Assembly: GCA_016195565.1 (NCBI GenBank)
Contig: JACPZK010000004.1
Span: 68,003 to 132,002 of the forward strand
Direction: 5' to 3'
Length of the DNA stretch: 64,000 bases
Source of the DNA: Nitrospirota bacterium
GTDB lineage: Bacteria > Nitrospirota > Thermodesulfovibrionia > Thermodesulfovibrionales > UBA1546
Shown: positions 1-14,935 of the stretch, piece by piece
How positions within the stretch are numbered: position 1 is the first letter of the stretch
Layout of the letters: the number at the start of each line of letters is the position of its first letter
Notes under the pieces: model-generated
Told to the model about the DNA's origin: nothing
Seen by the model: only the letters and a program-made list of their open reading frames with translations
The model's database searches: none
Translations under genes and position numbers: made by a program

Positions 1-103
1 GGTCATGGCAGGCAGGGAAAGGAGGGTAAATAAGGGTATAAAAATGAATAGAGTCATGGTCCCCTTTTAGTTTATTACCAATCAAAATAGAAAGGAGATT
101 AAT

Positions 104-724
104 ATGTTAAAGCGGTTATCGCTATTCTTAGTGTTTTCCAGTTTTCTAATAGGCATGGTGGGGTGTACATGCAAGCCAGCCGTGATCGGGTCTCTGCCTG
201 TAACGCTTCATCCTCAGGAAACTCAGAATTGGTGCTGGGCAGCAAGCGGGCAGATGGTAATGGATTATCTTGGCCATAATGTCTCTCAATGCACTGAGGC
301 CAATAATCGTTTCGGCCGCAACGATTGCTGCAATATCGATCTGTGCCCGCCACCAACGGAGGCCACCCCACACGGTTGTGTAGTCGGTGGCTGGCCGGAG
401 TTTGACAAATACGGGTTCACATTCAAAACAACTGCCAGTGCGCCGCTTACCTGGGACCAGTTGAGGGAACAGATTTCTAACGAATCTTACTGCAAGAAGA
501 AGCCGTTCGCCTTCTCATGGGGTTGGCTGGGCGGTGGAGGGCACATGATGGTTGCCAAAGGCTATCTCACATTGGCAGGGACAAACTATGTAGTTATCAT
601 GGACCCGTGGGCGCCGTGCGTCGGGGACGAGCGTATAATCACTTATGACTTTTATAACGCCGACCCAACGGACCATACGCACTGGGACGATTACTATGAC
701 GTAACATACACAGGAGGTAAATAA
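104..724 (+). CDS. Papain-like cysteine protease, lipoprotein (C39/C70-like)
   Basis: Predicted outer- or inner-membrane-anchored cysteine peptidase of 206 residues. The N terminus is a lipoprotein signal peptide with lipobox M-V-G-C (Cys21 would be lipidated). The catalytic layout of the papain-like superfamily is visible: QNWCWAASG places the nucleophile at Cys44 after an oxyanion Gln, GGGGHMMVAKGY gives His147, and VVIMDPW gives Asp167. Extra Cys residues (63, 75, 76, 81, 92, 130, 172) suggest disulfides outside the cytoplasm. A good Shine-Dalgarno sequence (aaaggag) precedes the ATG. It is the first of ten co-directional genes, and the next gene begins one base after its stop. Family fold is well supported; the substrate is unknown. 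Confidence 0.8.
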   Translation: MLKRLSLFLVFSSFLIGMVGCTCKPAVIGSLPVTLHPQETQNWCWAASGQMVMDYLGHNVSQCTEANNRFGRNDCCNIDLCPPPTEATPHGCVVGGWPEFDKYGFTFKTTASAPLTWDQLREQISNESYCKKKPFAFSWGWLGGGGHMMVAKGYLTLAGTNYVVIMDPWAPCVGDERIITYDFYNADPTDHTHWDDYYDVTYTGGK

Positions 725-725
725 G

Positions 726-1373
726 ATGCGAATCTTGATATCCTTACTTATTGCTCTATTTTTAATGGCCTCACAGGCGAGCGCGCAGGAGACAAAAGTG
801 CCTATTAAGGAGATACAACCCGTGGCACAAAGGTCTCTGGAGACCTTCAGCCAGCTTGTCACAAAGGAGAACTACAGGCAGATGGGTTTTGAATCTCCTG
901 AAGAGGTGCGCTCTGCAACCCTCGGCGCCCCCGTACAGGACTTCATGGTGCGGCTCGACAAGTTGAAAAAATACGAGCCGGGCAGCAGACCTGATGAATT
1001 GTTAACGGCAACAAGCCAGGTAATTTATCCGGTGCTTGTAAAAGGTCAGGTGAGGTCATCAATAACCCTCTCAAAGACTAAGGAAAGCTGGCAGGCCGTG
1101 TCATTCGGCGGTTTCAACTTCGTGAAACTGGTTTCAAGTACGCTAATGGAGAGCTCAAAAGTGACAGGGCTCGATTACTCATCCTATTTCCTTGTAAGAG
1201 TTCCTTCATTAAATCTCTTTTTCCTCGGCTTTCGCTCGAACAACGAGCTGATGCTTGTGCCGCTTACGGACAATCCCAAGATGGAATTCAAGGCTGGAGC
1301 CAGCATGAAGGCAGAAAAGGTCTTTTCCGCAATTCTGCCCGATGCCAAGGCGCATAACGGTCTACCAAGATAG
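726..1373 (+). CDS. Secreted protein of unknown function
   Basis: A 215-residue protein with a clear Sec signal peptide (hydrophobic core at residues 2-18, likely cleavage after ASA-Q). No domain is recognised. The mature part is mixed alpha/beta with a stretch around residues 98-130 rich in short beta-like segments, and there are no Cys residues. It follows the papain-like lipoprotein with a one-base gap and an aggaggt Shine-Dalgarno inside the preceding gene, so the two are almost certainly co-translated. The pairing suggests a periplasmic partner, inhibitor or chaperone of the protease, but nothing in the sequence proves that. Confidence 0.7.
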   Translation: MRILISLLIALFLMASQASAQETKVPIKEIQPVAQRSLETFSQLVTKENYRQMGFESPEEVRSATLGAPVQDFMVRLDKLKKYEPGSRPDELLTATSQVIYPVLVKGQVRSSITLSKTKESWQAVSFGGFNFVKLVSSTLMESSKVTGLDYSSYFLVRVPSLNLFFLGFRSNNELMLVPLTDNPKMEFKAGASMKAEKVFSAILPDAKAHNGLPR

Positions 1374-1452
1374 TAAAAGGTGAATGTCGTGAGCTTTGAG
1401 CAGGTCATGGAGGTATCAGAGGCAGTGGATAGTCTTGGTTAGGTTTAAAGCG

Positions 1453-1483
1453 ATACCGGGGCAGGCATTGCCTGCCCCGGTAT
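1453..1483 (+). terminator. Strong hairpin, possible terminator
   Basis: A perfect 15-bp inverted repeat (ATACCGGGGCAGGCA and its complement) separated by one base lies between the secreted-protein gene and the next lipoprotein gene. It would form a very stable stem. No U-run follows, so it may act as a partial terminator or an mRNA-stabilising element rather than a classic intrinsic terminator. Confidence 0.5.
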
Positions 1484-1513
1484 TAAAGATACACGGGAGG
1501 GTAGGAGGAAGAA

Positions 1514-3169
1514 ATGAAATCAAAAATATTTTATAAGTGGTATCTTTTAGTATTATTGAGTATTCTGATTTTCTACATAGGTGGCTGTTGCCCTCCTTTT
1601 TGTAAGCCAGAACCACCAAAACCTGATGATAGAAAATCCATATTGTCTCCTCCCACGGTCATTCCTCCGCTCTACGAATGTGCAACTGCTGTGTCAGTTC
1701 AAGGCTTTGTACCAGGAGCTACAATCGACATCTATGCTAACGGTGCACGCATTGGGGGTGGTGTCTCAGATGCACCATGGGGGCAGAGATTCTCGGTTAA
1801 CCCTGCTTTGGTTGTTGGGCAAGTTATCACTGCTACTCAGACAGTAAGCGGTGTAACGAGCCAGCTATCTGACGGTGTAGTGGTTGAATCCCTTTTTAAA
1901 ACCCATCCTGAAGGACTTCCAAAACCAAAACTTGAGACCCCGTTATACGACTGCGGTGGGGCTATAGGTGTTAATAATTTGGCACCGGGTGGACTTCTTG
2001 AGGTATTTGCGGATGGAAATCTTGTTGGCGATGTAAACGGATGCGGAGCCGGGCAATGGCTTTTTGTGAACCCTCCTTTTGTCAAAAATCAAGGAGTCTA
2101 TGCTGCTGAAACATTATGCCTGATTAGAGGACCTCAATCAGACTTGGAAACTGTGCAAGCAGCCCCTGCATCGCTTCCAACTCCCACGGTAAGGGATGTT
2201 TATGAAGGAGGGAAATACGCTACGGTGGATAATATAGTCAATGGCGCTATGACGAAAGTTTATAACGGGGCATTGCAAATTGCCGGACACTACTGTTCTG
2301 GGGGAAGCCAGATATTCAGGTTAAATCCTCAACCTGCGGCAGGAGACAGCCTTACCGCTGACCAACAGTTGTGCAATGTAAAAAGCAATCCATCGGATCC
2401 GACAACTGTAAAACCATGCCGTGAGCTACCGGCTCCGATGATACCTTCAATCTGTGCAGGAGATGATTCCATTACTGTATCAGGTACTGCCCCGGATGCC
2501 CGTATTCGTGTTTATGCCAATGGGAATCTTATTGGAGATGGGGGCGGAACCACGATAAACTTGACCCGCCCTGTAGTTGGCGGAGAATCAATCACTGTGA
2601 CACAATCATTAGGTCAATGTACCAGCCCGCCTTCTACCCCTGTTCAAGTCGGTCAAGGATCGAAAGTGGCTTGCAGTATACCACCATACAGCCCGGCCTA
2701 TTGGAACGACGGGGGATTTGTTGAGCTTCATAACAATTGCTATAACTATTCCAACAACAAAAGAACAGACACATTTGCCCAGCCTGGAAGGGCAGCAGGA
2801 GCTGTTTGGCATGATAGATGCGGAGATAAGCCTTGGGAGTGGGGTCCATGTGATACATGTAAAGACGTATATAATGCCGCCATTGCCGATGGCCTTAAAC
2901 CTTTGCCAGCCTCAGGAATTTGTCCCTGCAATAAGGATAAATTGGCTCTTGTTATAGCACCTGGTTGGGATTATCATTGGTATCGTCTGGATGGTGGCGG
3001 AATGTGGTCTCACAAGCCCGGGGGGACGCCGGCAACCGACCACGATAATTCCGGCAATCCCGTTGCCAATCCTGAAACAGCAGATAGGGGGGAATATACC
3101 GACTTTTGCGGCTATTTCTGCTCCTGTTCGGATGCTGCTCAGGGCCAAGGTCATGAAAATATTAACTAA
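1514..3169 (+). CDS. Lipoprotein with four Ig-like repeats and a C-terminal Cys/His domain
   Basis: A 551-residue lipoprotein: signal peptide ending I-G-G-C with the acylated Cys near residue 25. Four divergent repeats of about 75-90 residues follow, each opening with a pattern like LYECATAVSVQGFVPGATI and carrying an I-x-V/I-Y-A-N-G core (residues about 50-125, 140-215, 225-300, 310-385), with paired Cys. The C-terminal domain (about 395-551) has NNCYNYSNN, a FAQPG segment, DYHWYRLDGGGMWSHKPG and a Cys-rich tail. A conserved Cys followed by H-W and S-H-K-P looks like a papain/NlpC-type hydrolase core, but I cannot name the family. Shine-Dalgarno ggagggtaggagg is strong. Probably a surface or periplasmic adhesin-like enzyme. 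Confidence 0.65.
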   Translation: MKSKIFYKWYLLVLLSILIFYIGGCCPPFCKPEPPKPDDRKSILSPPTVIPPLYECATAVSVQGFVPGATIDIYANGARIGGGVSDAPWGQRFSVNPALVVGQVITATQTVSGVTSQLSDGVVVESLFKTHPEGLPKPKLETPLYDCGGAIGVNNLAPGGLLEVFADGNLVGDVNGCGAGQWLFVNPPFVKNQGVYAAETLCLIRGPQSDLETVQAAPASLPTPTVRDVYEGGKYATVDNIVNGAMTKVYNGALQIAGHYCSGGSQIFRLNPQPAAGDSLTADQQLCNVKSNPSDPTTVKPCRELPAPMIPSICAGDDSITVSGTAPDARIRVYANGNLIGDGGGTTINLTRPVVGGESITVTQSLGQCTSPPSTPVQVGQGSKVACSIPPYSPAYWNDGGFVELHNNCYNYSNNKRTDTFAQPGRAAGAVWHDRCGDKPWEWGPCDTCKDVYNAAIADGLKPLPASGICPCNKDKLALVIAPGWDYHWYRLDGGGMWSHKPGGTPATDHDNSGNPVANPETADRGEYTDFCGYFCSCSDAAQGQGHENIN

Positions 3170-3197
3170 TGCAAAATATTTAAATGGAGGTAGAAAC

Positions 3198-3692
3198 GTG
3201 TCTATTTTATTGCGATCAAAAAGACTTTTCTGTATAGCTATGTCGATCATAACAATATCAGTTGTGATCCTATCAGGCATTACCAGTGAAGCACAAGAAA
3301 AAGGGATGGGTGAAAAAAAGGGTTTAAAGGTGACGATACTGCTTTTCTCAGGCCGTCCTGATCCGACTTATCTATTAGAAGATAAAGCTGCAATAGAGCG
3401 ATTAAAAACCTTAATCGCCACTGCAAAGGTAAACGAGAAATTTGAAAAGGCCACTGTTATCCCTTCAATCCTCGGTTACAAAGGAATCATTGTAGATAAC
3501 CAGACAAAAGTTCCAGCTATCCCTGCCCATCTTGCTGTTTACAAGGGTAATATTGAAGTGAAAAATGAACGAAAAAAATTCCTGATAGATGAAGGGGGTG
3601 CTATAGAGGATCTTCTTCTGAAACAGGCAATTGAAAAGGGAGTGATAGATGAAAAGATACTTAAACGTATGAAATCAGAGACCGCTAAATAA
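3198..3692 (+). CDS. Secreted protein with SGRPDPT motif, unknown function
   Basis: The GTG at 3198 is chosen because GGAGG lies seven bases upstream and it opens directly into a signal peptide (basic RSKR, then a hydrophobic stretch to residue 27). An in-frame upstream reading extends back into the previous gene without any ribosome site. The 164-residue product has a mature domain beginning GLKVTILLFSGRPDP, followed by LGYKGIIV, and ends in a Lys-rich helix. There are no Cys residues beyond the signal. It lies 28 bases after the repeat lipoprotein and 11 before the transglutaminase-like gene, so it is part of the same unit. Function unknown. Confidence 0.65.
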   Translation: MSILLRSKRLFCIAMSIITISVVILSGITSEAQEKGMGEKKGLKVTILLFSGRPDPTYLLEDKAAIERLKTLIATAKVNEKFEKATVIPSILGYKGIIVDNQTKVPAIPAHLAVYKGNIEVKNERKKFLIDEGGAIEDLLLKQAIEKGVIDEKILKRMKSETAK

Positions 3693-3703
3693 AGGGGTAT
3701 AAT

Positions 3704-4894
3704 ATGAGTGTAATCATTGATGCTATCAAGTTCAACCACGATCCAAATTCTGCTGCCAATGATGCGGTTAATATCCGTAAAAACAAAACGCAATTTATCA
3801 ATGTGCCTGAATGGGTGCAGGGAATAAGCACAAAGGCTGAAGACTCTCTCGCTGCTTATGCAATAAAGGAGACGCAAGGAAATACTATAACTATTCAGGC
3901 GAGGTTTCACGCAGACGAAGGCATAGAGCAGGCTGAGATCAGGGCAATAGATCCAACTGTTACACCCAGCGGGTGTATTGGATGGATTATCAAAATACTC
4001 ATTGCTATATTCGGAAATGTTTTAGGTGAAGTAAAGAAGAAGCTGGTTACCTTTGGTGCCGGTGGAGATTCTGGTTTTGTTACCTTCGAACTCAAGAACC
4101 CAAAACTATGGGATGTTGGAGTTGGTATCCATTATACAACATGGAAATGGCAATACCGTTTAAATTGTCACAGTCCATGGATAGATATAGATACCACAAG
4201 GCATAAAATATATGTGTTGTTAGAGACCCCAAAAGATCCGTGGAAACAAACACCTTATAATGCTGCCAATGACCAGCTTCCATGGACTGAGGTAATAGAT
4301 TATTCCTGCATATGGGCTATTGGTGCAAAGGACAGAGATACTGCAGCAGGAAAGGTTACAGAAAGGGTGAATGCACTCGGCCCATCCATTGTTGAGTATG
4401 ACTGCCCTGGCGGTGGTGGAACACATTATTCATCTCCTAAATTTAACTGTACCGAATTTCTTGAGCGACTTAAGGGCGGTTCAGGACTCGGAAAGTATGT
4501 AAATTGCACTGATTGTGCGACAATCGTTTCAACATTTTCGAATATACTTGGATGTGACTTATGGCAGTCCAGAATGGGATCTGGATTTGGACTTAACGAG
4601 GTAATTTCTATAGGCTACTCTACATGGAGCACGCCTTGTGGCTGGTCAACATTTAACTATCATGAAGTTGCATGGAAGGGAGCGTGTGGCGTTGACGACG
4701 AGGTCTTCGATGCTTGTTTAAGAGTTGATGGGGATAGTAGTCCAAGAACTTCGCCTCACACACCGCTATTACCTATAAACATGAAGTTCGGAAATTGTGG
4801 GGACCTCTTATATCGAGATCGTTTAACTTCGCTTAGTGGATGCCCCTATTGTAATCCCCAACCGGCAACAAAGCAGCACCGACAAGTTATATAA
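3704..4894 (+). CDS. Transglutaminase/papain-fold-like protein, cytoplasmic
   Basis: A 396-residue protein with no signal peptide. The second half shows a Cys-His-Asp order typical of the transglutaminase-like (papain-fold) superfamily: VNCTDCATIVSTF (Cys271 at the start of a helix), FNYHEVAWKG (His320 on a strand) and VFDACLRVDG (Asp336). The first half holds a beta-rich domain, a short hydrophobic segment at residues 91-108 and a W/Y-rich stretch around 136-165. The Shine-Dalgarno is a weak aagggg. Whether it is a peptidase, an amide-bond ligase or an inactive relative cannot be told. The gene sits between a secreted protein and a beta-rich protein of unknown function. Confidence 0.6.
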   Translation: MSVIIDAIKFNHDPNSAANDAVNIRKNKTQFINVPEWVQGISTKAEDSLAAYAIKETQGNTITIQARFHADEGIEQAEIRAIDPTVTPSGCIGWIIKILIAIFGNVLGEVKKKLVTFGAGGDSGFVTFELKNPKLWDVGVGIHYTTWKWQYRLNCHSPWIDIDTTRHKIYVLLETPKDPWKQTPYNAANDQLPWTEVIDYSCIWAIGAKDRDTAAGKVTERVNALGPSIVEYDCPGGGGTHYSSPKFNCTEFLERLKGGSGLGKYVNCTDCATIVSTFSNILGCDLWQSRMGSGFGLNEVISIGYSTWSTPCGWSTFNYHEVAWKGACGVDDEVFDACLRVDGDSSPRTSPHTPLLPINMKFGNCGDLLYRDRLTSLSGCPYCNPQPATKQHRQVI

Positions 4895-4907
4895 AGGAGG
4901 ATGACGA

Positions 4908-5675
4908 ATGGCTAATAATCCTGAAGAAAGACAATACAACATTAGAAAATGGGCCGAACAGGCTGGGGTCGGTAAACCTTTACTTATCTGGAAATTCTTC
5001 ATGGCAGGAAAAGAAATTCCAGAATGGACGTTAATAAAGGCGCTTCCCGAAGAAATTCAAAAAGATAAAAGAACCATCACCTATATGTGGCAAAAGGGTA
5101 AAGGTAAGGGAGAAGAATTAATCAGAGTAGATGTTATAGAATCCGTTTCCTGGCGCCGAACACACGAAATATTGTTAGAACAACTAACCGGCGACTATCA
5201 GGCCTTTCAACTTCCGGAGGCTGCATCCCGAAAGATTGAATTGGGAGATGTTGCCTACACCGGTTTTGGGGAAACTATTCAATCCACAATCTTTGCCCGT
5301 GCAAATATGATTGTTCGTATCCATAGTGTTGGAAAGCAAAATATATCAATTGTTGATATAGCAAAGCAGGTAGATAATCTGTTTATCTCTAAACCAAAAC
5401 CATCTGAAAAGGGTGTCATCCCGGAGATTGAACTCTTTTCCCCGGACAAGATGATTACAAGAAGGGGCGAAAAAGTGGCATTGAACATTAAAGCCAGGGA
5501 CCCTCTTGATAGGCCGCTATGGTATAAACTTATGGCAGAGGAAGGGGAGTTTTTTGTCGAAGGTGAAAAGGTGTACTTTTTATCAGAAAAAGCTGGTCAA
5601 CCAAAGACCTCTCTATTCGTAATCAATGAAAATGGTTTTGTATCAGGCAGCAGCCTGAGTATTAAAGCAGAGTGA
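4908..5675 (+). CDS. Two-domain protein of unknown function (beta-sandwich C terminus)
   Basis: A 255-residue protein without signal peptide, preceded by a strong aaggaggatgacga Shine-Dalgarno. Residues about 55-155 form an alpha/beta region with the pattern IELGDVAYTGFGE followed by IFARANMIVRIHS and a helix containing IVDIAKQVDN, reminiscent of domains that read out a measured or transported protein but not one I can name. Residues about 168-250 look like an Ig-like beta-sandwich. No catalytic motif is seen. It follows the larger transglutaminase-like gene by 13 bases and precedes the second one, so it may be a partner of either. Confidence 0.6.
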   Translation: MANNPEERQYNIRKWAEQAGVGKPLLIWKFFMAGKEIPEWTLIKALPEEIQKDKRTITYMWQKGKGKGEELIRVDVIESVSWRRTHEILLEQLTGDYQAFQLPEAASRKIELGDVAYTGFGETIQSTIFARANMIVRIHSVGKQNISIVDIAKQVDNLFISKPKPSEKGVIPEIELFSPDKMITRRGEKVALNIKARDPLDRPLWYKLMAEEGEFFVEGEKVYFLSEKAGQPKTSLFVINENGFVSGSSLSIKAE

Positions 5676-5741
5676 GGTGTGGTTGGTATGAACGCCTGTC
5701 AGAGGAAGGTGGTATTAATAGAGAGAGCTAAAGAGGTTTTC

Positions 5742-6497
5742 ATGAAGAAAATTAAATACGGCGAATGGGCCGTCCATCCAGAGATTGCAGAGATGGTAAA
5801 AGTCCCGAAGGTTGCTACTGCGATATGGAAGAAGATGGCCACAAAACACGAAGGCGATGTTCTGTACTATAAGTTATGGAACTTCTGGGTAAGGGCCGGC
5901 GTTAAGGCTGATTTAAGGAGTGATATATTTTTCAGGGATTACGAGAGGGCAAATGCAGATACAGATGCCCTTTTAATAGATGTTGGTTTTCCATGGAGAA
6001 AGGCTGAAACTGAAGAAGAAGTCTGGGAGCGCATAGGCCTGGTCTGGAATTGGCTCAGAGACAATGTTCAGGTTAATAATGATGAATATAGCACCATATC
6101 CTCTGTGGAGGGTGAGTGGCCTTCTATCATGGATTATGCCAGATATTATGTGAGTCATGGGAATCTTGTCTGGGCTGCTTGCTTTTCGAAAGCACATCTC
6201 TTTGCCACATTGCTTGGAAGGATGGTTTATCCGAGATTCCGTTTTGCAATTGCCGAGGCGCATCATACAGAAAATGGGGCGCCTCCAACAGCAACGCATG
6301 TATATGTAGCAGTTTATGTGAGCGACCGCTGGTTTTATCTCGACCCCACAGCGGTTCATAGCGAGGATTTTCCTGACTTTAGACATAGAAAGTCCATAGG
6401 CGTGGATAGTTTTGATACAGTAGATTATGAACATCCGTATATGCTTATACCTGTTCCTTTATCAGGTTTTGAGCTTGTTCCTTATTTACCGAAGTGA
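5742..6497 (+). CDS. Transglutaminase-like cysteine protein
   Basis: A 251-residue protein from the ATG at 5742, chosen for the MKKIKYGEW start with aagagg upstream; an in-frame ATG at 5688 and a further one at 5679 would add up to 21 residues. The transglutaminase-like core is clear: NLVWAACFSKAHLFATLLGR (Cys147), THVYVAVYVSDRWFYLDPTA (His186 and Asp201). This is the usual order in bacterial transglutaminase-core proteins acting as peptidases or amidases. No signal peptide. It is the fourth papain-fold-type protein in 6.5 kb, which is unusual for one operon. Substrate unknown. Confidence 0.75.
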   Translation: MKKIKYGEWAVHPEIAEMVKVPKVATAIWKKMATKHEGDVLYYKLWNFWVRAGVKADLRSDIFFRDYERANADTDALLIDVGFPWRKAETEEEVWERIGLVWNWLRDNVQVNNDEYSTISSVEGEWPSIMDYARYYVSHGNLVWAACFSKAHLFATLLGRMVYPRFRFAIAEAHHTENGAPPTATHVYVAVYVSDRWFYLDPTAVHSEDFPDFRHRKSIGVDSFDTVDYEHPYMLIPVPLSGFELVPYLPK

Positions 6498-6554
6498 AGG
6501 AGGTCGGGTGATGATCACCGACAAATCTTAAGAATTAAATTAAGAGGAGGTATT

Positions 6555-6749
6555 ATGAAACTACGAGAAATCAAGGCCCTTGCAAAGGGGAAAGACGTTA
6601 AGGCCGGTAATATGAAAAAAGCAGAACTTATTAAAGCTATTCAAAAGGCTGAAGGTAATGCTGATTGTTTTGGGGCTGCAACATCAGGAGAATGTGATCA
6701 GACGAATTGTCTCTGGAGAGAGGATTGTTTGAACCTGAATAACAGGTGA
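6555..6749 (+). CDS. Mini-protein with SAP/HeH-like helix pair and Cys-rich tail
   Basis: Sixty-four residues preceded by taagaggaggt. Residues 1-33 (MKLREIKALAKGKDVKAG then MKKAELIKAIQKAEG) match the pattern of SAP/HeH or Rho-N type helix-extended-loop-helix modules that bind nucleic acid. The tail from residue 36 holds four Cys (DCFGAATSGECDQTNCLWREDC), spaced as in a small metal-binding or disulfide knuckle. It lies between the transglutaminase-like gene and a lipoprotein gene. Nucleic-acid binding is inferred from the helical pattern only. Confidence 0.65.
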   Translation: MKLREIKALAKGKDVKAGNMKKAELIKAIQKAEGNADCFGAATSGECDQTNCLWREDCLNLNNR

Positions 6750-6770
6750 GGATTATACGAGGAGGGTCAG

Positions 6771-7379
6771 ATGAAGAAACTCATTGTCGTCGTTTTAATC
6801 TGTTGTTGTTTGGCCTTTGCCGCAGCCTGTGTTACACCGCTTAAGGTTGTGAATGTGGGCGCTCCGGCCATAAACTGCGTGTTTGATCCGTCATGTAGGG
6901 TTACGGTGACTGACACCACTGCCCCTATTCCCATTCCTGCAGGAGGGACTAATTTTTTACAGTCCAGAACATTTGCAGGTCAACCTGGCGCTCCGGCCAA
7001 CGGCCTTCATGCGTATGAGTACAGGATTGATCTAAGGAATGCAATGGGTATCACATATATCCCCTGTATTAGCTCAATGACGCTTGAGTTCGGCCCTGTG
7101 GTCAGCACACTTGACTACGATGGAGACGGAGTGGCCGACCAAGTTTATGTCGTCACAAGCGGGGGGCTGGGTAGCATCGGCCTTGCTTCGGCGGAGAAGG
7201 AAGGCAACACGATTACCTTCAATTTTAGCGCTCCTGTATGTGCAGGTGGTCATCCTGGCGGCGGCCAGAGCGCCTATTTCTTCGGTTTGGTTTCCACACA
7301 ACCCCCGGGACCTGTTACGGCGACCGTAAAGGAGACTACTGGTACGGTGCACAACGTCCCTGTACTCGCACCTCAATGA
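6771..7379 (+). CDS. Lipoprotein of unknown function
   Basis: A 202-residue lipoprotein: basic start MKKL, hydrophobic core, lipobox F-A-A-A-C with the acylated Cys near residue 20. The mature protein is Gly/Pro/Thr-rich and beta-like. A DYDGDGVAD segment near residue 115 resembles a calcium-binding EF-hand/dockerin loop. The preceding aggagggtcag is a strong ribosome site. It sits 21 bases after the mini-protein gene. No family recognised. Confidence 0.6.
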   Translation: MKKLIVVVLICCCLAFAAACVTPLKVVNVGAPAINCVFDPSCRVTVTDTTAPIPIPAGGTNFLQSRTFAGQPGAPANGLHAYEYRIDLRNAMGITYIPCISSMTLEFGPVVSTLDYDGDGVADQVYVVTSGGLGSIGLASAEKEGNTITFNFSAPVCAGGHPGGGQSAYFFGLVSTQPPGPVTATVKETTGTVHNVPVLAPQ

Positions 7380-7529
7380 AGGACGGTTCTTTTTTAAGTC
7401 GCCAATCCAAAATGAGGGAGGTGATGACTAAGATTTAAGCGAAAGTAGAATGGCTGAACTTCTATCCTTATAGGGTTTAATTGGTTATATGAAAACACGG
7501 ATATCTTATATCAAATATGAGGGAGAAAC

Positions 7530-9191
7530 ATGGAGGACGGTATGGAGAAAGTTAAAATCAAACCTTATATTGGAACTAAAATGATTCTGCTCGCCTTCAA
7601 TTGGGAATCAGGAAAAGACAGAAGTGATTTTTTAGGATTTGCAATTAAAAGATCTCCGGGTTATGGAAAAGCAAAAGAGAACTGGCTGCCCAACAGAATC
7701 AGTTTCGATGGACCGGTTAAGGGAAGGGAGTTTCCCTCCAATAAAAGTCCTATCCAAAAATTTATGTGGTGGGACAATAGAGTCAATCATAAAGACAGGT
7801 CAATAGAGTATACGTATACGATTTATCCGGTTGTTGGCAGCAAGGACAACCTAAACTTAGTTGAGAATGCGAAGAGTTCAATCAAAACAAAATTACTGCC
7901 TGATGAATTCAACGGTGTGGGGACATACTTTAATAGAGCAGTTGTCAGTTCCCAGGCATTTTCAAAAAAATTTCCGAAGGGCGTAACAAGTGCTAATAAA
8001 CTTAAAGCATTAAAATGGCTTGCCGATGGCTTAGAGCAGGTAATCCCAAGCTTTTTAAATAATTCGGATGCTGTCGAAGGAGCGATTTATCATTTAGAAG
8101 ATAAGTATTGGATAATACCGGCATTCGAAGATTACCCGAAGTCTATATCCTTAGTTTACGATAATGCTAAGGGTGATGACAAAACAAATAGCTATGCTGT
8201 CTCAAAACTGGGGGGAACGGCTCATGTGCAATTACTGCCCCGGACACGCACGTCTATAATGCATAACAAGTTTTTAGTTAGATTAACCGGCAACAAGGCG
8301 ACTGAGGTGCTGATGGGTTCAGCAAATTTCACTACCGATGGGTTATCGCAACAAGCCAACTACTTGCATACTTTCGCCTGTCCTGAGCTTGCCGGGCATT
8401 ATCTGGGCAGAAAGAGGATTCTGGAGGATGATCCTAAAAAAGCAGAAACGGCAAAACTTGCAGAATGGTCGGATGAAATCACTTTTAACGGGTTGCAAAT
8501 CCGAGCGTATTTTTCACCCGAGAAAAAACCGGGAAGAATTGCCATGTCTCCAATAATTGACGCAATTAATAACGCAAAAAAATCTGTAGTTTTCTCACTA
8601 TTCAGTCCTACTGACTCTGAACTTAGGAATGTTATTTTTGAAGCTGCTGACCGAGGCTTAATGATGTTTGGCTTGATAAATAAAGTTGATGATACTAAAC
8701 CGGAAAGAACAAGCGAAAGGGCTGATGTTGTGGCAAGAGTTGAAATCTACCACAGATCAAAAAATAATAAGGATGTTTACGGGCATTCTTACTTTAAAAA
8801 AGACGAAGCCCCTGATGGTTTCTGGTGGGAAAAAAGCGGTTTTGGAAAAAGAAAACATCCCGTTTATATTCATCACAAGTTTATTGTTATAGATGCTGAA
8901 ACCGATAATCCAACCATTTATACAGGCTCTGCCAACATGAGCAGCAACTCCAATTACAATAATGATGAAAACCTTCTTGAAATCAAGGGAGGGAAAGAGC
9001 TGGCATCCATTTATCTGGCGGAATTTTTGAGACTTTATGAGCATTACAGGGCAAGAGTTCAATGGGATGACTTTATAAAAAAGGGGGAAAAATCAACTTA
9101 TAAGCTTGCGGGAAATTCAAGATGGGCAAAAGACGATTATGACTCTAATAACCCAAAATCAAAGTCAAGGCTTTCAATGGTTGGGCAATAG
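7530..9191 (+). CDS. Phospholipase D-like protein with two HKD motifs
   Basis: A 553-residue member of the PLD superfamily. Two catalytic half-sites are visible: IMHNKFLVRL...GSANFT (His245, Lys247) and IHHKFIVID...GSANMSSNS (His448, Lys450, Asp455). The first lacks the usual acidic residue at the +7 position (Leu252), so one half may be weakened. No signal peptide or membrane segment. Such proteins act as phospholipases, nucleases or helicase-linked restriction factors; a 150-residue N-terminal region precedes the first HKD. Shine-Dalgarno gagggagaaac fits the ATG at 7530. It is the last gene of the accessory cluster, separated from the lipoprotein by 150 bases with no gene. Confidence 0.8.
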   Translation: MEDGMEKVKIKPYIGTKMILLAFNWESGKDRSDFLGFAIKRSPGYGKAKENWLPNRISFDGPVKGREFPSNKSPIQKFMWWDNRVNHKDRSIEYTYTIYPVVGSKDNLNLVENAKSSIKTKLLPDEFNGVGTYFNRAVVSSQAFSKKFPKGVTSANKLKALKWLADGLEQVIPSFLNNSDAVEGAIYHLEDKYWIIPAFEDYPKSISLVYDNAKGDDKTNSYAVSKLGGTAHVQLLPRTRTSIMHNKFLVRLTGNKATEVLMGSANFTTDGLSQQANYLHTFACPELAGHYLGRKRILEDDPKKAETAKLAEWSDEITFNGLQIRAYFSPEKKPGRIAMSPIIDAINNAKKSVVFSLFSPTDSELRNVIFEAADRGLMMFGLINKVDDTKPERTSERADVVARVEIYHRSKNNKDVYGHSYFKKDEAPDGFWWEKSGFGKRKHPVYIHHKFIVIDAETDNPTIYTGSANMSSNSNYNNDENLLEIKGGKELASIYLAEFLRLYEHYRARVQWDDFIKKGEKSTYKLAGNSRWAKDDYDSNNPKSKSRLSMVGQ

Positions 9192-9416
9192 TTTCAACCC
9201 TGCCCTCTTAGGAGGTCAGCCGTGCCAAAACATAGAAGTCTTTCGGGGAGCCCATTTATAAACCCTAACCGCAGGACATAAGAGAAAGGAGGAAAAATTC
9301 AGGATTTACAGGTGGCTTGCAACTGAAGGCGCCCTGATATTTGATTTCGGGGCAAAATAAACTGGACAGTTCACTGTGATGGGATTGTCCCAATAATTCA
9401 AGAGAGGAGATTACAA

Positions 9417-9593
9417 ATGACTAAAACTGCATCAGTCAAAGAATTCAACTTAAAAGTAGCCAAGCTTATCAAGGAATTAAGCCCAGAGGAAATCGTGGAA
9501 GTTCTAAGCTCTGAAGAATCCTTAATTAATATGCCGCACGATAAGAATATTCATCGTCGTGTCAGCCCTGAAGCTAAAAGCCAAGTTAGTTAA
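9417..9593 (+). CDS. Small protein of 58 residues, candidate modified-peptide precursor
   Basis: Starts MTKTASVKEF behind a strong agagaggagatt ribosome site and ends PEAKSQVS. Residues 8-37 are a charged amphipathic helix (LKVAKLIKELSPEEIVEVLSS), the tail from residue 38 is polar (MPHDKNIHRRVSPEAK) and Cys-free. That helix-plus-tail design, directly upstream of a B12 radical SAM enzyme, resembles leader/core precursor peptides. It could equally be a small regulatory protein. Codon use looks normal. Nothing else in the window resembles it. Confidence 0.5.
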   Translation: MTKTASVKEFNLKVAKLIKELSPEEIVEVLSSEESLINMPHDKNIHRRVSPEAKSQVS

Positions 9594-9602
9594 TTCAGCA
9601 GA

Positions 9603-9638
9603 ACTAACTATCTGTGCCGCAAGGCACAGATAGTTAGT
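9603..9638 (+). promoter_or_regulatory. Perfect 16-bp hairpin with GCAA loop between small ORF and radical SAM gene
   Basis: Arms ACTAACTATCTGTGCC (9603-9618) and its exact complement (9623-9638) enclose a GCAA tetraloop. It lies ten bases after the small ORF and 22 before the radical SAM start, with no U-run. This is the usual place for a stem that protects a precursor transcript or attenuates expression of the downstream enzyme. Confidence 0.65.
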
Positions 9639-9660
9639 AATTTAGTGAGGCAACCAAAAA

Positions 9661-11637
9661 ATGACAGACCTTTTACTTGTTTTTCCTCCTCAATGGAGCC
9701 CTTTTCAGCCACCTCTCGCTCCGCCAAGTTTATCTGCATGGTTAAAGCGAGAAGGTTTTGATGTGTCCAGTCAGGACGTAAATATATTATTTTTTGAATG
9801 GCTTCTATCGGATGAATGCGCAGAAATACTTATTAAAAGAGTTAGAAAACTGCCCTTAAGACAATCCCAAAAGGACGGATATGAAGCTGTATTGAAGAAT
9901 GCTGGTGACTTTAGGCGGGATATATTTTCACTTCGGGACTTAAAAAAATCAAAAATATCTTTAAATCATGAGGATTTGATAAAAAAATACTATATCGCCA
10001 CAAAAGCTCTTGAGGTATACCTGGAAGTTATTTCAAAGATATCTGATGCTTTTGCATTATATCCATATGATTTTCGATTGAAAGGAGGCAATCTTAATTT
10101 CAATACGTTAGAACAAATGCTGCTCAACCCTCCCGAAGTGTTCAGCATTTATGCCGAACAAATAATTGAGAAGAATATTATGCCTGCAAATCCAAAAATT
10201 ATAGGATTATCCTGTCTAGGACAGGAACAATTATATTTCGTTCTTTTATTCGGGCAATTACTTAAATCCAGATCGGACATTCCTATTATTGTTGGAGGAA
10301 CTTTCTTGACTAGAATATTTGAGCAAGGCTCCCTGAAAGCGAGCTGGTTTACGAAATATTTCGATATTATCGTAATAAATGAAGGAGAAAAACCGTGTCA
10401 AGAAATATTGTCAAATCTCAGAGACGGCTTTGCTCTTACCAAAGAAGTTTCCGGGATAATATTTTTGGAAGATAACACGATTGTCTCATCCCCTCCCGGC
10501 AGAGCATTAAATCCAGCAGAAATACCTATTCCTGATTTTGATGACATGCCCCTTGAGCGTTATTTTTCCATTGCGACTACCCTTCCACTTCTCGCATCAA
10601 GAGGATGTTACTGGGGCAAATGTGAATTTTGTCGTCATGGAATGGTTTATGGTGATAATAATTTTAAGGTTTATGAAATTAACAAGGTATTAGATACAGT
10701 GAACCATCTTTCACAAAAATATAACATTTCACAATTCTCATTTCGAGATGAAGCAATGCCGCCTTCCATCATTCGTCAATTAGGTAAAGTGTTTCCTCCT
10801 CATGTTGAAACGGGTTGGACCTTTTCAGGAGACGTTCGCTTCGATAAATCATTTACCATGGATGATTTCACAAATCTTTATAAGATCGGATTTCGATCTC
10901 TTCAGGTAGGATTAGAATCAGGATCAGAACATGTTCTGAAATTGATGAAGAAAGGAGATGATAATTACAGAAAAGAAACAATGATTAGAAATTTAGCAAC
11001 TGCAACTGAATCCGGCATTTGGATACACTGCTTTTTATTTTTTGGCTTTCCCGGTGAAACCGATGAAGACGCCAGGCAAACTTATGAGTTTGTTTTGCAT
11101 CATGCAAATACAATAGGCAATTTTGGATGCGGAACTTTTATCCTGGAACATAATTCGCCAATTTTCCGTCATGTTAATGATTTTGGCGTACGAATAATGA
11201 ATCAGTCCGATAACACGCGCATGAACGTATTTTATGAACACGAAGTTTCCGAAGGTATTTCAATCAAGAGAGCTTTGGAATGGATGGAAACACTTGTATC
11301 GGCGTCAAACAAAATATCAAAATTTCACGCTGTCAGCTGGATACCCAGGGAACAATATCTCTGTATTCTATCCAGAATAGAACCTCATCAACTTATAGAA
11401 GAAGGACAGTCCATCCGCACATTTAAAAATTTACCCCAAAATGCTTCTTTATCGGAAATAGCCAGTTTGATTTCGCATCCAAGAGAAGAAAATACTGTTA
11501 TATTGATTAATCGAATAAATCACCGGATTTTAAATCTAAAAGGCAAATCGTCTGAACTAATACGCTTATTTTATGAAAACGATTTTGAGTTGCTCAAAAT
11601 GCATGAATATTGCCCAAATTGTATCGACTGGCTCTGA
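9661..11637 (+). CDS. B12-binding domain radical SAM protein
   Basis: A 658-residue enzyme. The N-terminal part (to about residue 265) has the B12-binding Rossmann pattern: LLLVFPPQW at the start, then IIGLSCLGQEQ, IIVGGTF and IIVINEGEKP. The radical SAM barrel begins at residue 311, SRGCYWGKCEFC, with cluster ligands Cys316, Cys321 and Cys324 (CX4CX2C rather than the canonical CX3CX2C, a variant known in B12 radical SAM proteins). WTFSGDVRF, LQVGLESGSE and FLFFGFPGETDED continue the barrel. The last 60 residues (ENTVILINRINHRILNLKG) loosely resemble a PqqD-type peptide-recognition fold. Preceded by the 58-residue ORF and a hairpin; substrate unknown. Confidence 0.85.
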   Translation: MTDLLLVFPPQWSPFQPPLAPPSLSAWLKREGFDVSSQDVNILFFEWLLSDECAEILIKRVRKLPLRQSQKDGYEAVLKNAGDFRRDIFSLRDLKKSKISLNHEDLIKKYYIATKALEVYLEVISKISDAFALYPYDFRLKGGNLNFNTLEQMLLNPPEVFSIYAEQIIEKNIMPANPKIIGLSCLGQEQLYFVLLFGQLLKSRSDIPIIVGGTFLTRIFEQGSLKASWFTKYFDIIVINEGEKPCQEILSNLRDGFALTKEVSGIIFLEDNTIVSSPPGRALNPAEIPIPDFDDMPLERYFSIATTLPLLASRGCYWGKCEFCRHGMVYGDNNFKVYEINKVLDTVNHLSQKYNISQFSFRDEAMPPSIIRQLGKVFPPHVETGWTFSGDVRFDKSFTMDDFTNLYKIGFRSLQVGLESGSEHVLKLMKKGDDNYRKETMIRNLATATESGIWIHCFLFFGFPGETDEDARQTYEFVLHHANTIGNFGCGTFILEHNSPIFRHVNDFGVRIMNQSDNTRMNVFYEHEVSEGISIKRALEWMETLVSASNKISKFHAVSWIPREQYLCILSRIEPHQLIEEGQSIRTFKNLPQNASLSEIASLISHPREENTVILINRINHRILNLKGKSSELIRLFYENDFELLKMHEYCPNCIDWL

Positions 11638-11747
11638 GGCGTTAAACCTCTTTAATTGTTCCGCGGCTCATCCTTAGCTGTCTCCCTGCCTTGCGAGTTC
11701 TATGCTGTGCGTTATAAAAATAAAGGTGTCGACTTCAAATTAAAACT

Positions 11748-11987
11748 TTAGGGCTGTGAGGGTTCCCCTGTTTCCTCTAAAAGTTGTCTTATATATTTCA
11801 GAGCTTCTTCGGCGGCTTCTTCATCCACTTTCTGTATGGCGAAACCTGCATGCACCAGGACAAAGTCTCCAATCTTTGCATCATCAGGCATAAGGAGAAG
11901 GCTTACACTGCGTTGTGCGCCATAGACCTCAACAGTGGCATTCAAATCCTGAATCGTTATTATTTTAGATGGAACTGCAAGGCACAT
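11748..11987 (-). CDS. hypC: Hydrogenase maturation chaperone HypC/HybG
   Basis: A 79-residue protein beginning MCLAVPSKI; Cys2 is the conserved residue that carries the Fe(CN)2CO intermediate with HypD and binds the large-subunit precursor. The body (VEVYGAQRSVSLLLMP, IGDFVLVHAGFAIQKVDE) is the OB-fold typical of the family, at normal length. It is the last gene of the hydrogenase unit, 61 bases after the maturation protease. HypA, B, D, E and F are not in the window and must be elsewhere. Confidence 0.95.
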   Translation of the reverse strand: MCLAVPSKIITIQDLNATVEVYGAQRSVSLLLMPDDAKIGDFVLVHAGFAIQKVDEEAAEEALKYIRQLLEETGEPSQP

Positions 11988-12048
11988 TTTTTTCTCCCGT
12001 TAAAATAGTCTAATGCATTACTTCATAATCTGTAAACAGGCTCGTAAA

Positions 12049-12588
12049 TCAAGGCTCTGTTGTGATTTTTGAATGATTCCCCAGCGCTTTTATTTTCTTG
12101 AGTTCATCAAAAACAAGTTCTTTAACCTTAGGCATTGCCATTCTGACTTCATCTGACAGTTCAAGCCCCCATAAAATGTTTTTCGGCTGTACAGCTATAA
12201 TCACTGTTTTTGGCTTTGCGCCTGTAAGCGCAGCCATATCAAGGACGTCTGTGAGGCTTATCTGGTGAAGTGATATTTTCTGTTCTGAATGAAAGCTCAT
12301 ATCCTCTGGAGAAAACTTGAATATTGATCCCGGCGCGTCACCGGCCTCTACAACATCTATTACAATCAGGTAATCAATTGAACGAAATGCAGGGATAAGC
12401 TGGTGGCTTACTGTCCCAGCTTCAAGTATCTGAACATTGGGAGGAAATGCGGTTTCTTCAAGCGATTGAATTAGATGGACTCCGAATCCGTCATCTCTGA
12501 GCAGAATATTCCCCACGCCAAGAATTAAAACTTTAGGGGGAGGCGATACACCTCCCCCACTTTGCTCAAGAATACCCTTTTTTGTCAT
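12049..12588 (-). CDS. hyaD: Hydrogenase maturation protease (HyaD/HycI family)
   Basis: Cleaves the C-terminal extension of the [NiFe] large subunit after nickel insertion. Signature VLILGVGNILLRDDGFG near residues 20-36 (Asp, nickel-sensing) and LIVIDVVEAGDAPG. The ATG at 12588 is taken as start; it lies inside a REP-like palindrome and has no clear ribosome site, and a TTG nine bases further upstream is also open. The first 18 residues (KKGILEQSGGGVSPPP) are not family-like and encode a GC-rich hairpin, so the N terminus seems to be formed by inserted DNA. Core family assignment is secure. Confidence 0.88.
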   Translation of the reverse strand: MTKKGILEQSGGGVSPPPKVLILGVGNILLRDDGFGVHLIQSLEETAFPPNVQILEAGTVSHQLIPAFRSIDYLIVIDVVEAGDAPGSIFKFSPEDMSFHSEQKISLHQISLTDVLDMAALTGAKPKTVIIAVQPKNILWGLELSDEVRMAMPKVKELVFDELKKIKALGNHSKITTEP

Positions 12589-12656
12589 TGCGAGCAAAGC
12601 GAAGCAATCCCACTATTTTCTTGAGATTGCTTCGGGACTCCGTCCCTCGCAATGAC
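12584..12656. repeat. REP-like palindromic element, copy 1
   Basis: An imperfect palindrome bounded by GTCATTGCGAG on the left and CTCGCAATGAC on the right, with inner arms GAAGCAATCC / GAGATTGCTTCGG. It lies between hyaC and the maturation protease and overlaps the protease start. The same boundaries recur at 19664-19811. Confidence 0.8.
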
Positions 12657-12688
12657 ACTCCTATAATAGATATTACCCTTTTCATTCA

Positions 12689-13333
12689 TCAGAATTTTTT
12701 CTTGAGTTTATAGCCTGTAAAAATGGAACTGAAGGTCTTGTCTTTGTGGACAACAGACCATATCAAACCCATATACATATGGGCGCCGAGAAAGATGATG
12801 AAAACCCACATTGAAAGGAAATGCCATATTCTTGTGTAGGATTCACCACCGAGCATTGCATTAACCCATCTGAAACTCTCCTGAGCGTTGATGAATCCGA
12901 ATGCATTTCCTTTATAAAGAGCCGCGCCTGTAAATGTTGTGAAGATTATCAGCACTGCAATTAAGAGATAGGCAAACGCCTGGAGCGGATTATACTTCCT
13001 GTAATCTTTATGCGTATCATTTACGAAGAGATAGTAAGCGAGCATATCAGGAAGATCTTTCAGGTTTTTAGTTATGCTGAAGTCTTTCCAGTCTCTGTCA
13101 AATGCAGAGTTGAATGCCAGGTATACTCTTACAACAAGCCCCAGGACAAGCGCATATGCAGCAACAGAATGAAAAAATTTCATCCAAGACATTACTGCGC
13201 TTTCAGCGCTCCCGCTTATAAACGGCCAGTGGATGTAAAACCCTGTGAATACGAGTGCCGCTATTGCAATGACCCTGACCCAGTGCTCTGCTCTTAACGC
13301 CAAACTCCATTCATATTTAAGTTCATTTGCCAT
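12689..13333 (-). CDS. hyaC: Ni/Fe-hydrogenase b-type cytochrome subunit
   Basis: A 214-residue membrane protein with four hydrophobic segments (about 17-38, 53-72, 119-142, 170-192). His residues that ligate two b hemes are visible in the family positions: RAEHWVRV (His17), KFFHSVAAY, IWHFLSMW and LGAHMYMG. It anchors HyaAB to the cytoplasmic membrane and passes electrons from H2 to the quinone pool. It follows hyaB by nine bases. Confidence 0.93.
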   Translation of the reverse strand: MANELKYEWSLALRAEHWVRVIAIAALVFTGFYIHWPFISGSAESAVMSWMKFFHSVAAYALVLGLVVRVYLAFNSAFDRDWKDFSITKNLKDLPDMLAYYLFVNDTHKDYRKYNPLQAFAYLLIAVLIIFTTFTGAALYKGNAFGFINAQESFRWVNAMLGGESYTRIWHFLSMWVFIIFLGAHMYMGLIWSVVHKDKTFSSIFTGYKLKKKF

Positions 13334-13342
13334 ATCTCCTCC

Positions 13343-14935
13343 CTATGACACCTTAAATTGCATTATCCTGTTGGATTCGGGATGTATCACGTGGACTGTG
13401 CACGCAAGACACGGATCAAATGAATGCACAACCCTCAAGACCTCAAGAGGTTTCTCAGGATTGACTACTGCCGTTCCGACAAGCGCCTCCTCAATCGGTC
13501 CCCTTACACCCTTGTCATCCCTCGGGCAAACGTTCCACGTTGTAGGCACAACGCACTGGTAGTTTTTAATCTTCTTCCCTTCAACATCTAACCAATGCCC
13601 CAGCGCTCCTCTGGGAGCTTCCCATAGTCCGATACCTTTTGCCTTGTCAGGTATTTCGTACGGCGTATAAACCTCTGCCTTGCCTTTTTTGATATTCTCT
13701 ACAATATCAAGTCCCCACTGATACATGGAATCAGCAACCATCTTGCATTCAAGCGCACGGGCCGCAATCCTGCCGACCACACCCAGGAGAACCTGCGGCT
13801 TTCCTGCGTGCCCGATTGCAGCCAATGTGTTGTCAATCAGTTTTTTCGCTGTTGGCTGTCCCGATGCATACGCCACGAGCATTCTTGCAAGGGCGCCGGC
13901 CTCCATTGGTTTATTCTTCAATCTTGGCGCCTTTGCCCATGTGTATTTTTTGTTAGGATCGTATTCTGTATATTCAGGGTCTGTTTCACCAATGCTTGGA
14001 TTTAAAGGTTGTGTGCCTTTATACCAACTATGTGAGGTGTGCTCTGTCACATCCTCTGGCTTTGCATCATGGACTTTCGGAAAGTCCTCGGCAAATATAG
14101 CCCCTCTCGGCAGAAGCCTCTTCTTGGGATCAAAGGATGCATCCTCAAAGACTCCCCATGAGAGGAAATTTGCATGTCCCTTTCCTACCCCGGCATAGTC
14201 AAGATAATAAGGGGCAATTGCAAGCACATCAGGAACATAGACAGTGTCTATCCAGTTCTGTAATTCTTTTATCCTGAAAAGATAATTAGCAATATCATCA
14301 ACAGTAGGGACATGAGTAGAGCCGCCAGGAGGGCTTGTCATTGTCATAGGCATTCTTCCGCCGAAGAGCGCGCTCAACTGAGCCGCCTTTGCCTGCATAT
14401 CCAGAGCCTCAAGATAATGAGCTACAGCGAGCAAATTTAAATCAGGAGGGAGTTTGTACGCGGGGTGTCCCCAGTATCCGTTTGCGAACGGCCCAAGCTG
14501 TCCTGATTCAACAAATGACTTGAGTTTTGCCTGCACCTTTTTAAGCGATGCTTCTTTGGGCTGCGCTTTAAGGGCAGCAACAACATCAACATAATCAAGC
14601 GCGGCAAGATGATAAAACCAGAGTATGTGCGAGTGAACAAACTGGCACCCTTCAACTATATTTCTTATTATCCTGCCATTGTCAGGAGGTTTTATCTTAA
14701 AAGCATCGTCCATGCTCATTGAAGATGTGTGTCCATGCGATGTGGGGCATACTCCGCAGATTCGCTGGGTAAGATGCCAGGCGTCTCTCGGGTCCCTGCC
14801 TTTCAGGATTATTTCAAAACCCCTGAACAAAGTGCCGCTTGTCCATGCGTCTTTAACCTTGCCGCCCTCAATCTCAACATCAATCTTTAAATGCCCTTCT
14901 ATCCTTGTAACTGGGTCTATGGTTATACGCGCCAT
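13343..14935 (-). CDS. hyaB: [NiFe] uptake hydrogenase large subunit
   Basis: A 530-residue catalytic subunit. The nickel-binding motifs are both intact: RICGVCPTSHGHTS (L1, residues 58-71) and DPCLACTVH (L2). The final 15 residues after that His are the peptide removed by the maturation protease encoded downstream. The L2-proximal region (SFDPCLACTVH) matches group 1 membrane-bound enzymes. Starts with MARITIDPVTRIEGH, the classical start. ATG overlaps the hyaA stop by one base, indicating translational coupling. Confidence 0.96.
   Translation of the reverse strand: MARITIDPVTRIEGHLKIDVEIEGGKVKDAWTSGTLFRGFEIILKGRDPRDAWHLTQRICGVCPTSHGHTSSMSMDDAFKIKPPDNGRIIRNIVEGCQFVHSHILWFYHLAALDYVDVVAALKAQPKEASLKKVQAKLKSFVESGQLGPFANGYWGHPAYKLPPDLNLLAVAHYLEALDMQAKAAQLSALFGGRMPMTMTSPPGGSTHVPTVDDIANYLFRIKELQNWIDTVYVPDVLAIAPYYLDYAGVGKGHANFLSWGVFEDASFDPKKRLLPRGAIFAEDFPKVHDAKPEDVTEHTSHSWYKGTQPLNPSIGETDPEYTEYDPNKKYTWAKAPRLKNKPMEAGALARMLVAYASGQPTAKKLIDNTLAAIGHAGKPQVLLGVVGRIAARALECKMVADSMYQWGLDIVENIKKGKAEVYTPYEIPDKAKGIGLWEAPRGALGHWLDVEGKKIKNYQCVVPTTWNVCPRDDKGVRGPIEEALVGTAVVNPEKPLEVLRVVHSFDPCLACTVHVIHPESNRIMQFKVS

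What the first reader, a model, noticed from the sequence alone, without database searches (positions are those of the whole stretch)
104..9191. Ten-gene accessory cluster rich in papain-fold proteins plus a PLD-like enzyme
Four different Cys-His-Asp type proteins (Cys44; the repeat lipoprotein domain; Cys271; Cys147), two exported partners, a beta-sandwich protein, a nucleic-acid-binding-like mini-protein, a lipoprotein and a two-HKD protein follow each other with strong ribosome sites and short gaps. Exported and cytoplasmic members are mixed. I know no described system with this set; it may be an envelope-peptide processing, antagonism or defence locus.
Basis: inference. Interest (0 to 1): 0.7.

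Follow-up and report, generated by a model that had tools for sequence, protein, structure and literature searches.

The report
Mobile island of cysteine-protease pairs
A horizontally inserted stretch of a Nitrospirota-type bacterial genome carries several protease-like enzymes, some beside their own partner protein, and a four-gene core of it also turns up in a distant phylum, so part of this odd cluster is a real but still uncharacterised travelling unit.

Summary
The ten genes are real. They are the 3' part of a ~22-kb island, not a natural unit: two same-genus genomes have the flanks (gltD, hypC) only ~1.8 and ~3.8 kb apart. The whole set of ten was found nowhere else. A core does travel: P5 (396 aa) and P6 (255 aa) are adjacent in 4 of 4 genomes with P5, including Fodinibius halophilus (another phylum). 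P4 and the C-terminal cysteine domain of P3 are adjacent or fused in 5 of 8 records with that domain. P2-type proteins lie beside a papain-fold gene in 2 of 2 cases. The pattern is papain-fold enzyme plus non-enzymatic partner (P1-P2, P3C-P4, P5-P6), like staphopain/staphostatin or SpeB/Spi loci, but with unnamed families. P7, P8 and P9 have no support as members. The PLD recurs convincingly only in G014, on another contig. Integron attC sites lie just upstream (two) and just after P6 in G014, so cassette capture probably helped assembly. Best reading: a mobile arsenal of envelope or secreted hydrolases with dedicated inhibitor, chaperone or immunity partners. Catalysis, localisation and partnership are inferred; both structure predictions failed (pLDDT 36 and 49).

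The parts
104..724 (+). P1: lipoprotein-type papain-fold protein, Peptidase_C39_2/C70 match, Cys44-His147-Asp167
726..1373 (+). P2: exported protein, no enzyme family; 28% relative in G031 lies next to a C1 papain gene
1514..3169 (+). P3: lipoprotein, N-terminal Ig-like repeats (sub-threshold) and C-terminal cysteine domain P3C (about residues 383-551; NNCY Cys409, DYHWYR His488)
3198..3692 (+). P4: exported small protein (FSGRPxP domain), fused to P3C in three other records
3704..4894 (+). P5: 396-aa transglutaminase/papain-like protein without signal peptide, Cys271-His320-Asp336, many invariant Cys
4908..5675 (+). P6: 255-aa partner, directly after P5 in 4 of 4 genomes
5688..6497 (+). P7: Cys-His-Asp (transglutaminase/NAT-like) protein; start may be 5742 (251 aa); found in no other relative searched
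6555..6749 (+). P8: 64-aa Rho_N/SAP-like mini-protein with Cys-rich tail (below Pfam cut-off)
6771..7379 (+). P9: 202-aa lipoprotein, weak FG-GAP
7530..9191 (+). P10: PLD-superfamily protein, second HKD motif complete, first lacks the Asp
9417..9593 (+). 58-aa peptide gene before the B12 radical SAM gene, same island, precursor-like by position only
9603..9638 (+). long hairpin between the peptide gene and the radical SAM gene
9661..11637 (+). B12-binding radical SAM protein, nearest rSAM_ocin_1 (128 bits, below cut-off 282)
11727..11987 (-). right border of the island (homology to G006/G002 resumes near 11727) and hypC

Best explanation
The ten genes are the 3' part of a ~22-kb genomic island in a variable spot between gltD and hypC of a Nitrospirota-type bacterium, built from horizontally moving pieces that in part are integron cassettes (insertion and transfer shown by comparison; integron role strongly suggested). 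The unit with a shared history is a set of pairs: a papain-fold cysteine enzyme plus a dedicated non-enzymatic partner. P3C-P4 and P5-P6 are the conserved core; P1-P2 is a likely third pair. I infer that the enzymes act at the envelope or outside the cell as hydrolases or transferases against foreign or surface material (competitor attack, or processing of proteins), and that P4, P6 and P2 act as inhibitor, pro-domain in trans, chaperone or immunity factor, as staphostatins and Spi do. P10 (PLD) would be a further hydrolase of the same arsenal. P7-P9 may be passengers.
For: Island: flanks 1.8 kb (G006) and 3.8 kb (G002) apart against 22 kb here, homology breaking at L005:9530 and window 11727. 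Pairing: P5-P6 adjacent and in the same order in 4 of 4 genomes with P5; P3C-P4 adjacent or fused in 5 of 8 records with P3C. Order P3C/P4-P5-P6 in G000 and G014; P3C-P4 next to a P5 remnant in Fodinibius. P2-type protein beside a papain-fold gene in 2 of 2 cases. Selection: dN/dS G000-G014 0.03 for P5, 0.11 for P6, 0.06 for P10. P6 diverges faster than P5 (39% against 68-71% identity to Fodinibius). Precedent: C10/C47 proteases co-transcribed with cytoplasmic inhibitors, two on mobile elements (PMC3462683, abstract and passages). Hydrolase company in related loci: patatin, M35, transglutaminase core, C1 papain.
Against: No catalytic activity, partner binding or location is shown. P3C, P4, P5 and P6 match no Pfam, NCBIfam, PADLOC or named PHROG family and no useful PDB sequence for P5 and P3C; structure predictions were useless (pLDDT 36 and 48.6). 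P5 and P6 lack signal peptides, so an outside role needs an unknown route. The G219 copy of P5 has three in-frame stops and Fodinibius also holds a decayed P5 copy, so the module is often lost. P1 and P7-P9 are not shown to belong. GC content of the island (0.42-0.43) does not differ from the flanks.
Confidence: 0.45

Rival explanations
1. Chance neighbourhood: an integron/hotspot dump of unrelated cassettes. The genes stand together because capture put them there, and papain folds are common among cassette proteins.
For: attC-like sites at L005:17832 and 19728 directly upstream and one after P6 in G014; integron integrase over cut-off in 5 of 13 genomes searched and 3' integrase fragments in G000; the gltD-hypC interval holds different genes in three genomes; P7 in 0 of 60 other relatives.
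Against: No attC in window 1-14000 (best 8 bits); P5-P6 and P3C-P4 are kept across phyla; purifying selection.
Confidence: 0.3
2. A RiPP biosynthesis island: radical SAM enzymes modify the small Cys-rich ORF (L005:16189) and the 58-aa peptide, and papain-type proteases cut leaders.
For: Three radical SAM proteins, two with a small ORF directly upstream; C1A proteases such as PoyH cut leaders in RiPP clusters (PMC10885120, passages).
Against: The G014 13.4-kb locus and the Fodinibius loci with P3C-P4 and P5-P6 show no radical SAM gene in their ORF lists, read by eye; the proteases are lipoproteins or paired with other proteins; no exporter gene seen between L005:10265 and window 11637; no radical SAM model reached its cut-off.
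Confidence: 0.15
3. Anti-phage defence locus with a PLD effector.
For: P10 weakly matches ZacB (34.5 bits) and DrmC (31.3 bits) models of PADLOC.
Against: None of the other nine proteins matches PADLOC at E 0.1; exported lipoproteins are unusual in defence systems (general knowledge).
Confidence: 0.05

Closest known systems
Staphopain-staphostatin (C47) and SpeB-Spi (C10) operons; Bacteroides Bfp/Bfi and Btp/Bti loci
   Same: Papain-fold protease gene next to a gene for a non-enzymatic partner; some on mobile elements (PMC3462683, abstract and passages)
   Different: Different protein families; partners here are larger (164-255 aa) and partly exported; P4 can be fused to its enzyme domain; inhibition untested
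Peptidase C39_2 / C70 (AvrRpt2-type) papain-like families
   Same: P1 passes both Pfam cut-offs
   Different: P1 is lipoprotein-like; P3C, P5 and P7 do not match
Integron cassette arrays
   Same: attC-like sites and integron integrases in the genus and next to the cluster
   Different: No attC between the ten genes
Proteusin-type RiPP clusters (PoyH C1A protease; B12 radical SAM methyltransferases, recalled)
   Same: C1 papain and B12 radical SAM genes in one island
   Different: The 58-aa peptide matches no NCBIfam model; core module exists without radical SAM genes
PLD superfamily nucleases/phospholipases (NucT, DrmC, mitochondrial cardiolipin hydrolase)
   Same: PLDc_2 domain and a complete HKD in P10
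   Different: Own subfamily of 553 aa; substrate not predictable

Membership tests
Protease-inhibitor operon (staphopain/staphostatin type) | papain-fold protease and partner adjacent and conserved as a pair | tested here: met
   P5-P6 4 of 4 genomes; P3C-P4 5 of 8 records; the papain fold of P5 and P3C itself is motif-based
Protease-inhibitor operon (staphopain/staphostatin type) | partner is homologous to staphostatin, Spi or another known inhibitor | tested here: not met
   no Pfam or NCBIfam match for P2, P4, P6 over cut-off
Protease-inhibitor operon (staphopain/staphostatin type) | partner inhibits the enzyme | not testable with these tools
   needs proteins
Peptidase C39_2/C70 | profile match over the curated cut-off | tested here: met
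   P1 33 bits (24) and 28.7 bits (19); P3, P5, P7 no match
Integron cassette array | attC site after each cassette | tested here: not met
   none in window 1-14000; two just upstream, one after P6 in G014
Integron cassette array | integron integrase in the genome or clade | tested here: met
   two 3' fragments at contig starts in G000; full-length over cut-off in 5 of 13 genomes
RiPP cluster | modifying enzyme scoring over a RiPP model's cut-off | tested here: not met
   best 128 bits against 282 and 148 against 500
RiPP cluster | precursor peptide of a known class | tested here: inconclusive
   58-aa peptide matches no NCBIfam model; the 61-aa ORF at L005:16189 was not searched
Known defence system | complete set of system genes | tested here: not met
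   PADLOC matches only for P10, weak
PLD superfamily | two HKD motifs | tested here: inconclusive
   second complete, first lacks the Asp; PLDc_2 over cut-off

The most novel reading that the evidence does not exclude
P3C-P4-P5-P6 is an undescribed, horizontally mobile antagonism module: two unrelated cysteine enzymes, each kept in check by its own partner (P4, P6), moved between phyla partly as integron cassettes and combined in related loci with phospholipases (PLD, patatin) and a metalloprotease under a response-regulator/AraC switch.
Probability: 0.2. Interest if true: 0.75.

Novelty: new variant of a known kind. Interest (0 to 1): 0.5.

Why it matters
If right, four protein families with no name become two testable enzyme-partner pairs, with homologues in a named strain (Fodinibius halophilus 2W32) in which knock-outs could be tried. 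It also suggests that multi-gene pieces of a hydrolase locus ride on chromosomal integrons of Nitrospirota, whose cassettes are little known.

Tried and rejected
Structure prediction of P5 (pLDDT 36.0) and P6 (48.6): too poor, so no fold search was run. PDB sequence searches for P5, P3C and P1: nothing useful (the one P3C hit, a sperm protein at E 0.043, is taken as chance). The G057 match to P5 (29%, three stops, antisense to a gene that I read as hemG-like) was dropped as spurious. The G017 match to P10 (18.5 bits) was dropped. Viral collections: no relative of P5 or P6; the P4-P3C fusion found none in IMG/VR, the P3C alignment found one IMG/VR locus and the phage collection one record. Plasmids: none for P5 or P6. 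The attC idea as an explanation of the gaps between the ten genes was tested with a covariance model and rejected for window 1-14000. GC content gave no island signal. Defence was tested with PADLOC and set aside. The canonical attC core consensus that I recall was not found in the one paper I searched for it (PMC8946536, 0 occurrences), so it is not used as evidence. No control was run for how often papain-fold genes cluster by chance.
Full report
What is there. Ten + strand ORFs fill window 104-9191 with good ribosome sites and gaps of 1 to 150 nt. I call them P1 to P10. Pfam names only P1 (Peptidase_C39_2 33 bits, Peptidase_C70 28.7 bits, both over cut-off) and P10 (PLDc_2, 69 bits); P8 reaches Rho_N below cut-off; P2 to P7 and P9 get nothing over cut-off. 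NCBIfam names none over cut-off and PADLOC has only weak P10 matches. In P3 the conserved cysteine domain is the last ~170 residues (P3C): NNCY, DxHxxR and a following WS are shared by six sequences from Nitrospirota, Fodinibius, Rhizobium, Vibrio and Streptomyces.

The cluster is part of an island. Upstream, in L005 (G000:C4:48203-68202; the window is G000:C4:68003-132002), co-directional genes continue from 10265: an exported 427-aa protein, a 444-aa protein (U2), a Cys-rich repeat protein, a C1 papain gene split in two frames, a propeller, a C13 legumain-like lipoprotein, a 61-aa Cys-rich ORF, a radical SAM/SPASM protein, a 194-aa Cys-rich protein and a second radical SAM protein. Downstream lie a 58-aa peptide gene and a B12 radical SAM gene. 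In G006 and G002 of the same genus, gltD and hypC, the flanks, are separated by about 1.8 kb (a multihaem cytochrome gene, by eye) and 3.8 kb (propeller and ABC genes, by eye); in G000 by about 22.0 kb. Homology to G006 stops at L005:9530 and resumes at window 11727. GC does not differ from the flanks.

Which genes travel together. P5: 3 of 61 relatives matched, of which I drop G057 as spurious, leaving G000 and G014; 3 of 295 genomes of the phylum, again minus G057, leaving G000 and G219; 1 of 92 in the family of Fodinibius halophilus. A strict-pattern scan of GTDB genomes gave two loci: Nitrospirae bacterium FW300_bin.22, whose contig has the length of the G014 contig, and Fodinibius halophilus at 68%. 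In all four genomes P6 follows P5 directly. The G219 copy of P5 has three in-frame stops and is cut by the contig end.

P3C and P4. They are adjacent in the window and in Fodinibius (L046, 9446-10394), and fused P4-P3C in G014, on a Rhizobium plasmid and on a Streptomyces plasmid. P3C without detected P4 occurs on a Vibrio plasmid, in an IMG/VR contig and in a phage protein that carries a signal-like start and a weak trypsin-like match ahead of P3C, two genes after an annotated holin. So 5 of 8 records pair them. In Fodinibius, P3C-P4 sit just after a decayed copy of the P5 start and before a CARDB lipoprotein with a transglutaminase-like motif (motif by eye). In G014 the order is U2 homologue, an exported 402-aa protein (papain-like to my eye, no Pfam match), P4-P3C fusion, a second P4, P5, P6.

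The other members. A P2 relative (28%, E 7e-15) exists in G031, 1 of 60 other relatives, and stands next to a C1 papain gene that is 56-61% identical to the broken one in L005, with a U2-like fragment (by eye), a patatin and two response-regulator/AraC genes close by. P7: 0 of 60 other relatives. P10: G014 only, among 40 other relatives (82-89%, two contig ends), if the 18.5-bit G017 match is left out; in G014 it lies next to a Hint-like protein (below cut-off), an M35 metalloprotease (147 bits) and a response-regulator/AraC gene 48% identical to the one on the P5 contig. No such regulator was found by tblastn in L005, L006, L040 or the window. P8 and P9 were not traced.

Selection. G000 against G014: dN/dS 0.03 for P5, 0.11 for P6, 0.06 for P10 (residues 1-387); P6 against G219 0.23 (simple counting method, synonymous sites near saturation). 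P5 is better kept than P6 in the comparisons made.

Integron traces. An element at L005:19722-19806 folds far better than shuffles (z -4.8), a diverged copy at 17826 does not (z -0.5). BLAST found the element repeatedly in the genus. G000 contigs C5 and C26 both begin with the 3' end of an integron-integrase-like gene (75 bits), and integrases over the cut-off occur in 5 of 13 genomes searched. A covariance model of 12 elements found, besides its own members, a site at L007:1997-1919 in G014, about 90 nt after P6 (31 bits, E 9e-4), in a locus not chosen for such sites; G005 contig C276 carries both such elements and integrase pieces. Window 1-14000 has none with filters off (best 8.2 bits). 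So the two-gene unit (194-aa protein and radical SAM) just upstream looks like a cassette, and P6 of G014 is followed by an attC-like site; the ten genes themselves are not a normal array.

How it most likely works. Shown: insertion, presence in two phyla, conserved pairs, purifying selection. Inferred: papain-like folds of P3C, P5 and P7 (motifs only), activity, location, and the role of P2, P4 and P6 as inhibitor, pro-domain, chaperone or immunity factor. The nearest working model is the co-transcribed cysteine protease with a cytoplasmic inhibitor (staphopain-staphostatin, SpeB-Spi, Bacteroides C10 loci), which PMC3462683 describes (abstract and passages read). A fusion of P4 in front of P3C in three records fits a pro-domain or chaperone at least as well as an immunity protein. 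Related loci with patatin, PLD and M35 protease suggest a hydrolase arsenal aimed outward, but nutrition by extracellular digestion cannot be told from antagonism with these data.

Literature. Searches: integron with Nitrospirota, sedentary chromosomal integron terms with Nitrospirae, Thermodesulfovibrionia with integron, integron with cysteine protease and transglutaminase. PMC9668308 mentions Nitrospirota among phyla with attC homologous to archaeal ones (one passage). None of the listings points to this gene set; the four core families have no name to search for, so absence from print is not established.

Noticed in passing
L005:17832-17900 and 19728-19798; L007:1919-1997: attC-like integron recombination sites next to the island genes and after P6 in G014; integron integrases in the genus.
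   Followed up: yes
L005:9960-10074 and 13368-13482: 115-nt repeat, 97% identical, with an inner palindrome, ahead of the exported 427-aa gene and of the C1 papain gene; perhaps a duplicated promoter region.
   Followed up: no
L005:13470-14398: C1 papain gene split over two frames; an intact relative exists in G031 (L070:4769-5686).
   Followed up: partly
L005:16189-17755 and window 9417-11637: Two radical SAM genes each directly behind a small ORF (61 and 58 aa), possible peptide-modification units; a long hairpin at window 9603 separates the second pair.
   Followed up: partly
L013:2656-3702: P5 copy of G219 keeps the frame over 349 codons but has three in-frame stops; a recent pseudogene or an unusual reading of stops.
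   Followed up: partly
L048:3309-5507 (phage PV036447.1): Phage protein with signal-like start, weak trypsin-like domain and a C-terminal P3C domain, two genes after an annotated holin, in a phage of Anaeroplasmataceae.
   Followed up: partly
interval gltD-hypC in G000, G002, G006 (L005/window, L054, L055): Three same-genus genomes hold three different gene contents between the same flanks: an insertion hotspot.
   Followed up: yes
L011:2520-6600 (Vibrio plasmid): P3C homologue in a row with a C45 peptidase, a hypothetical protein and an asparaginase.
   Followed up: no
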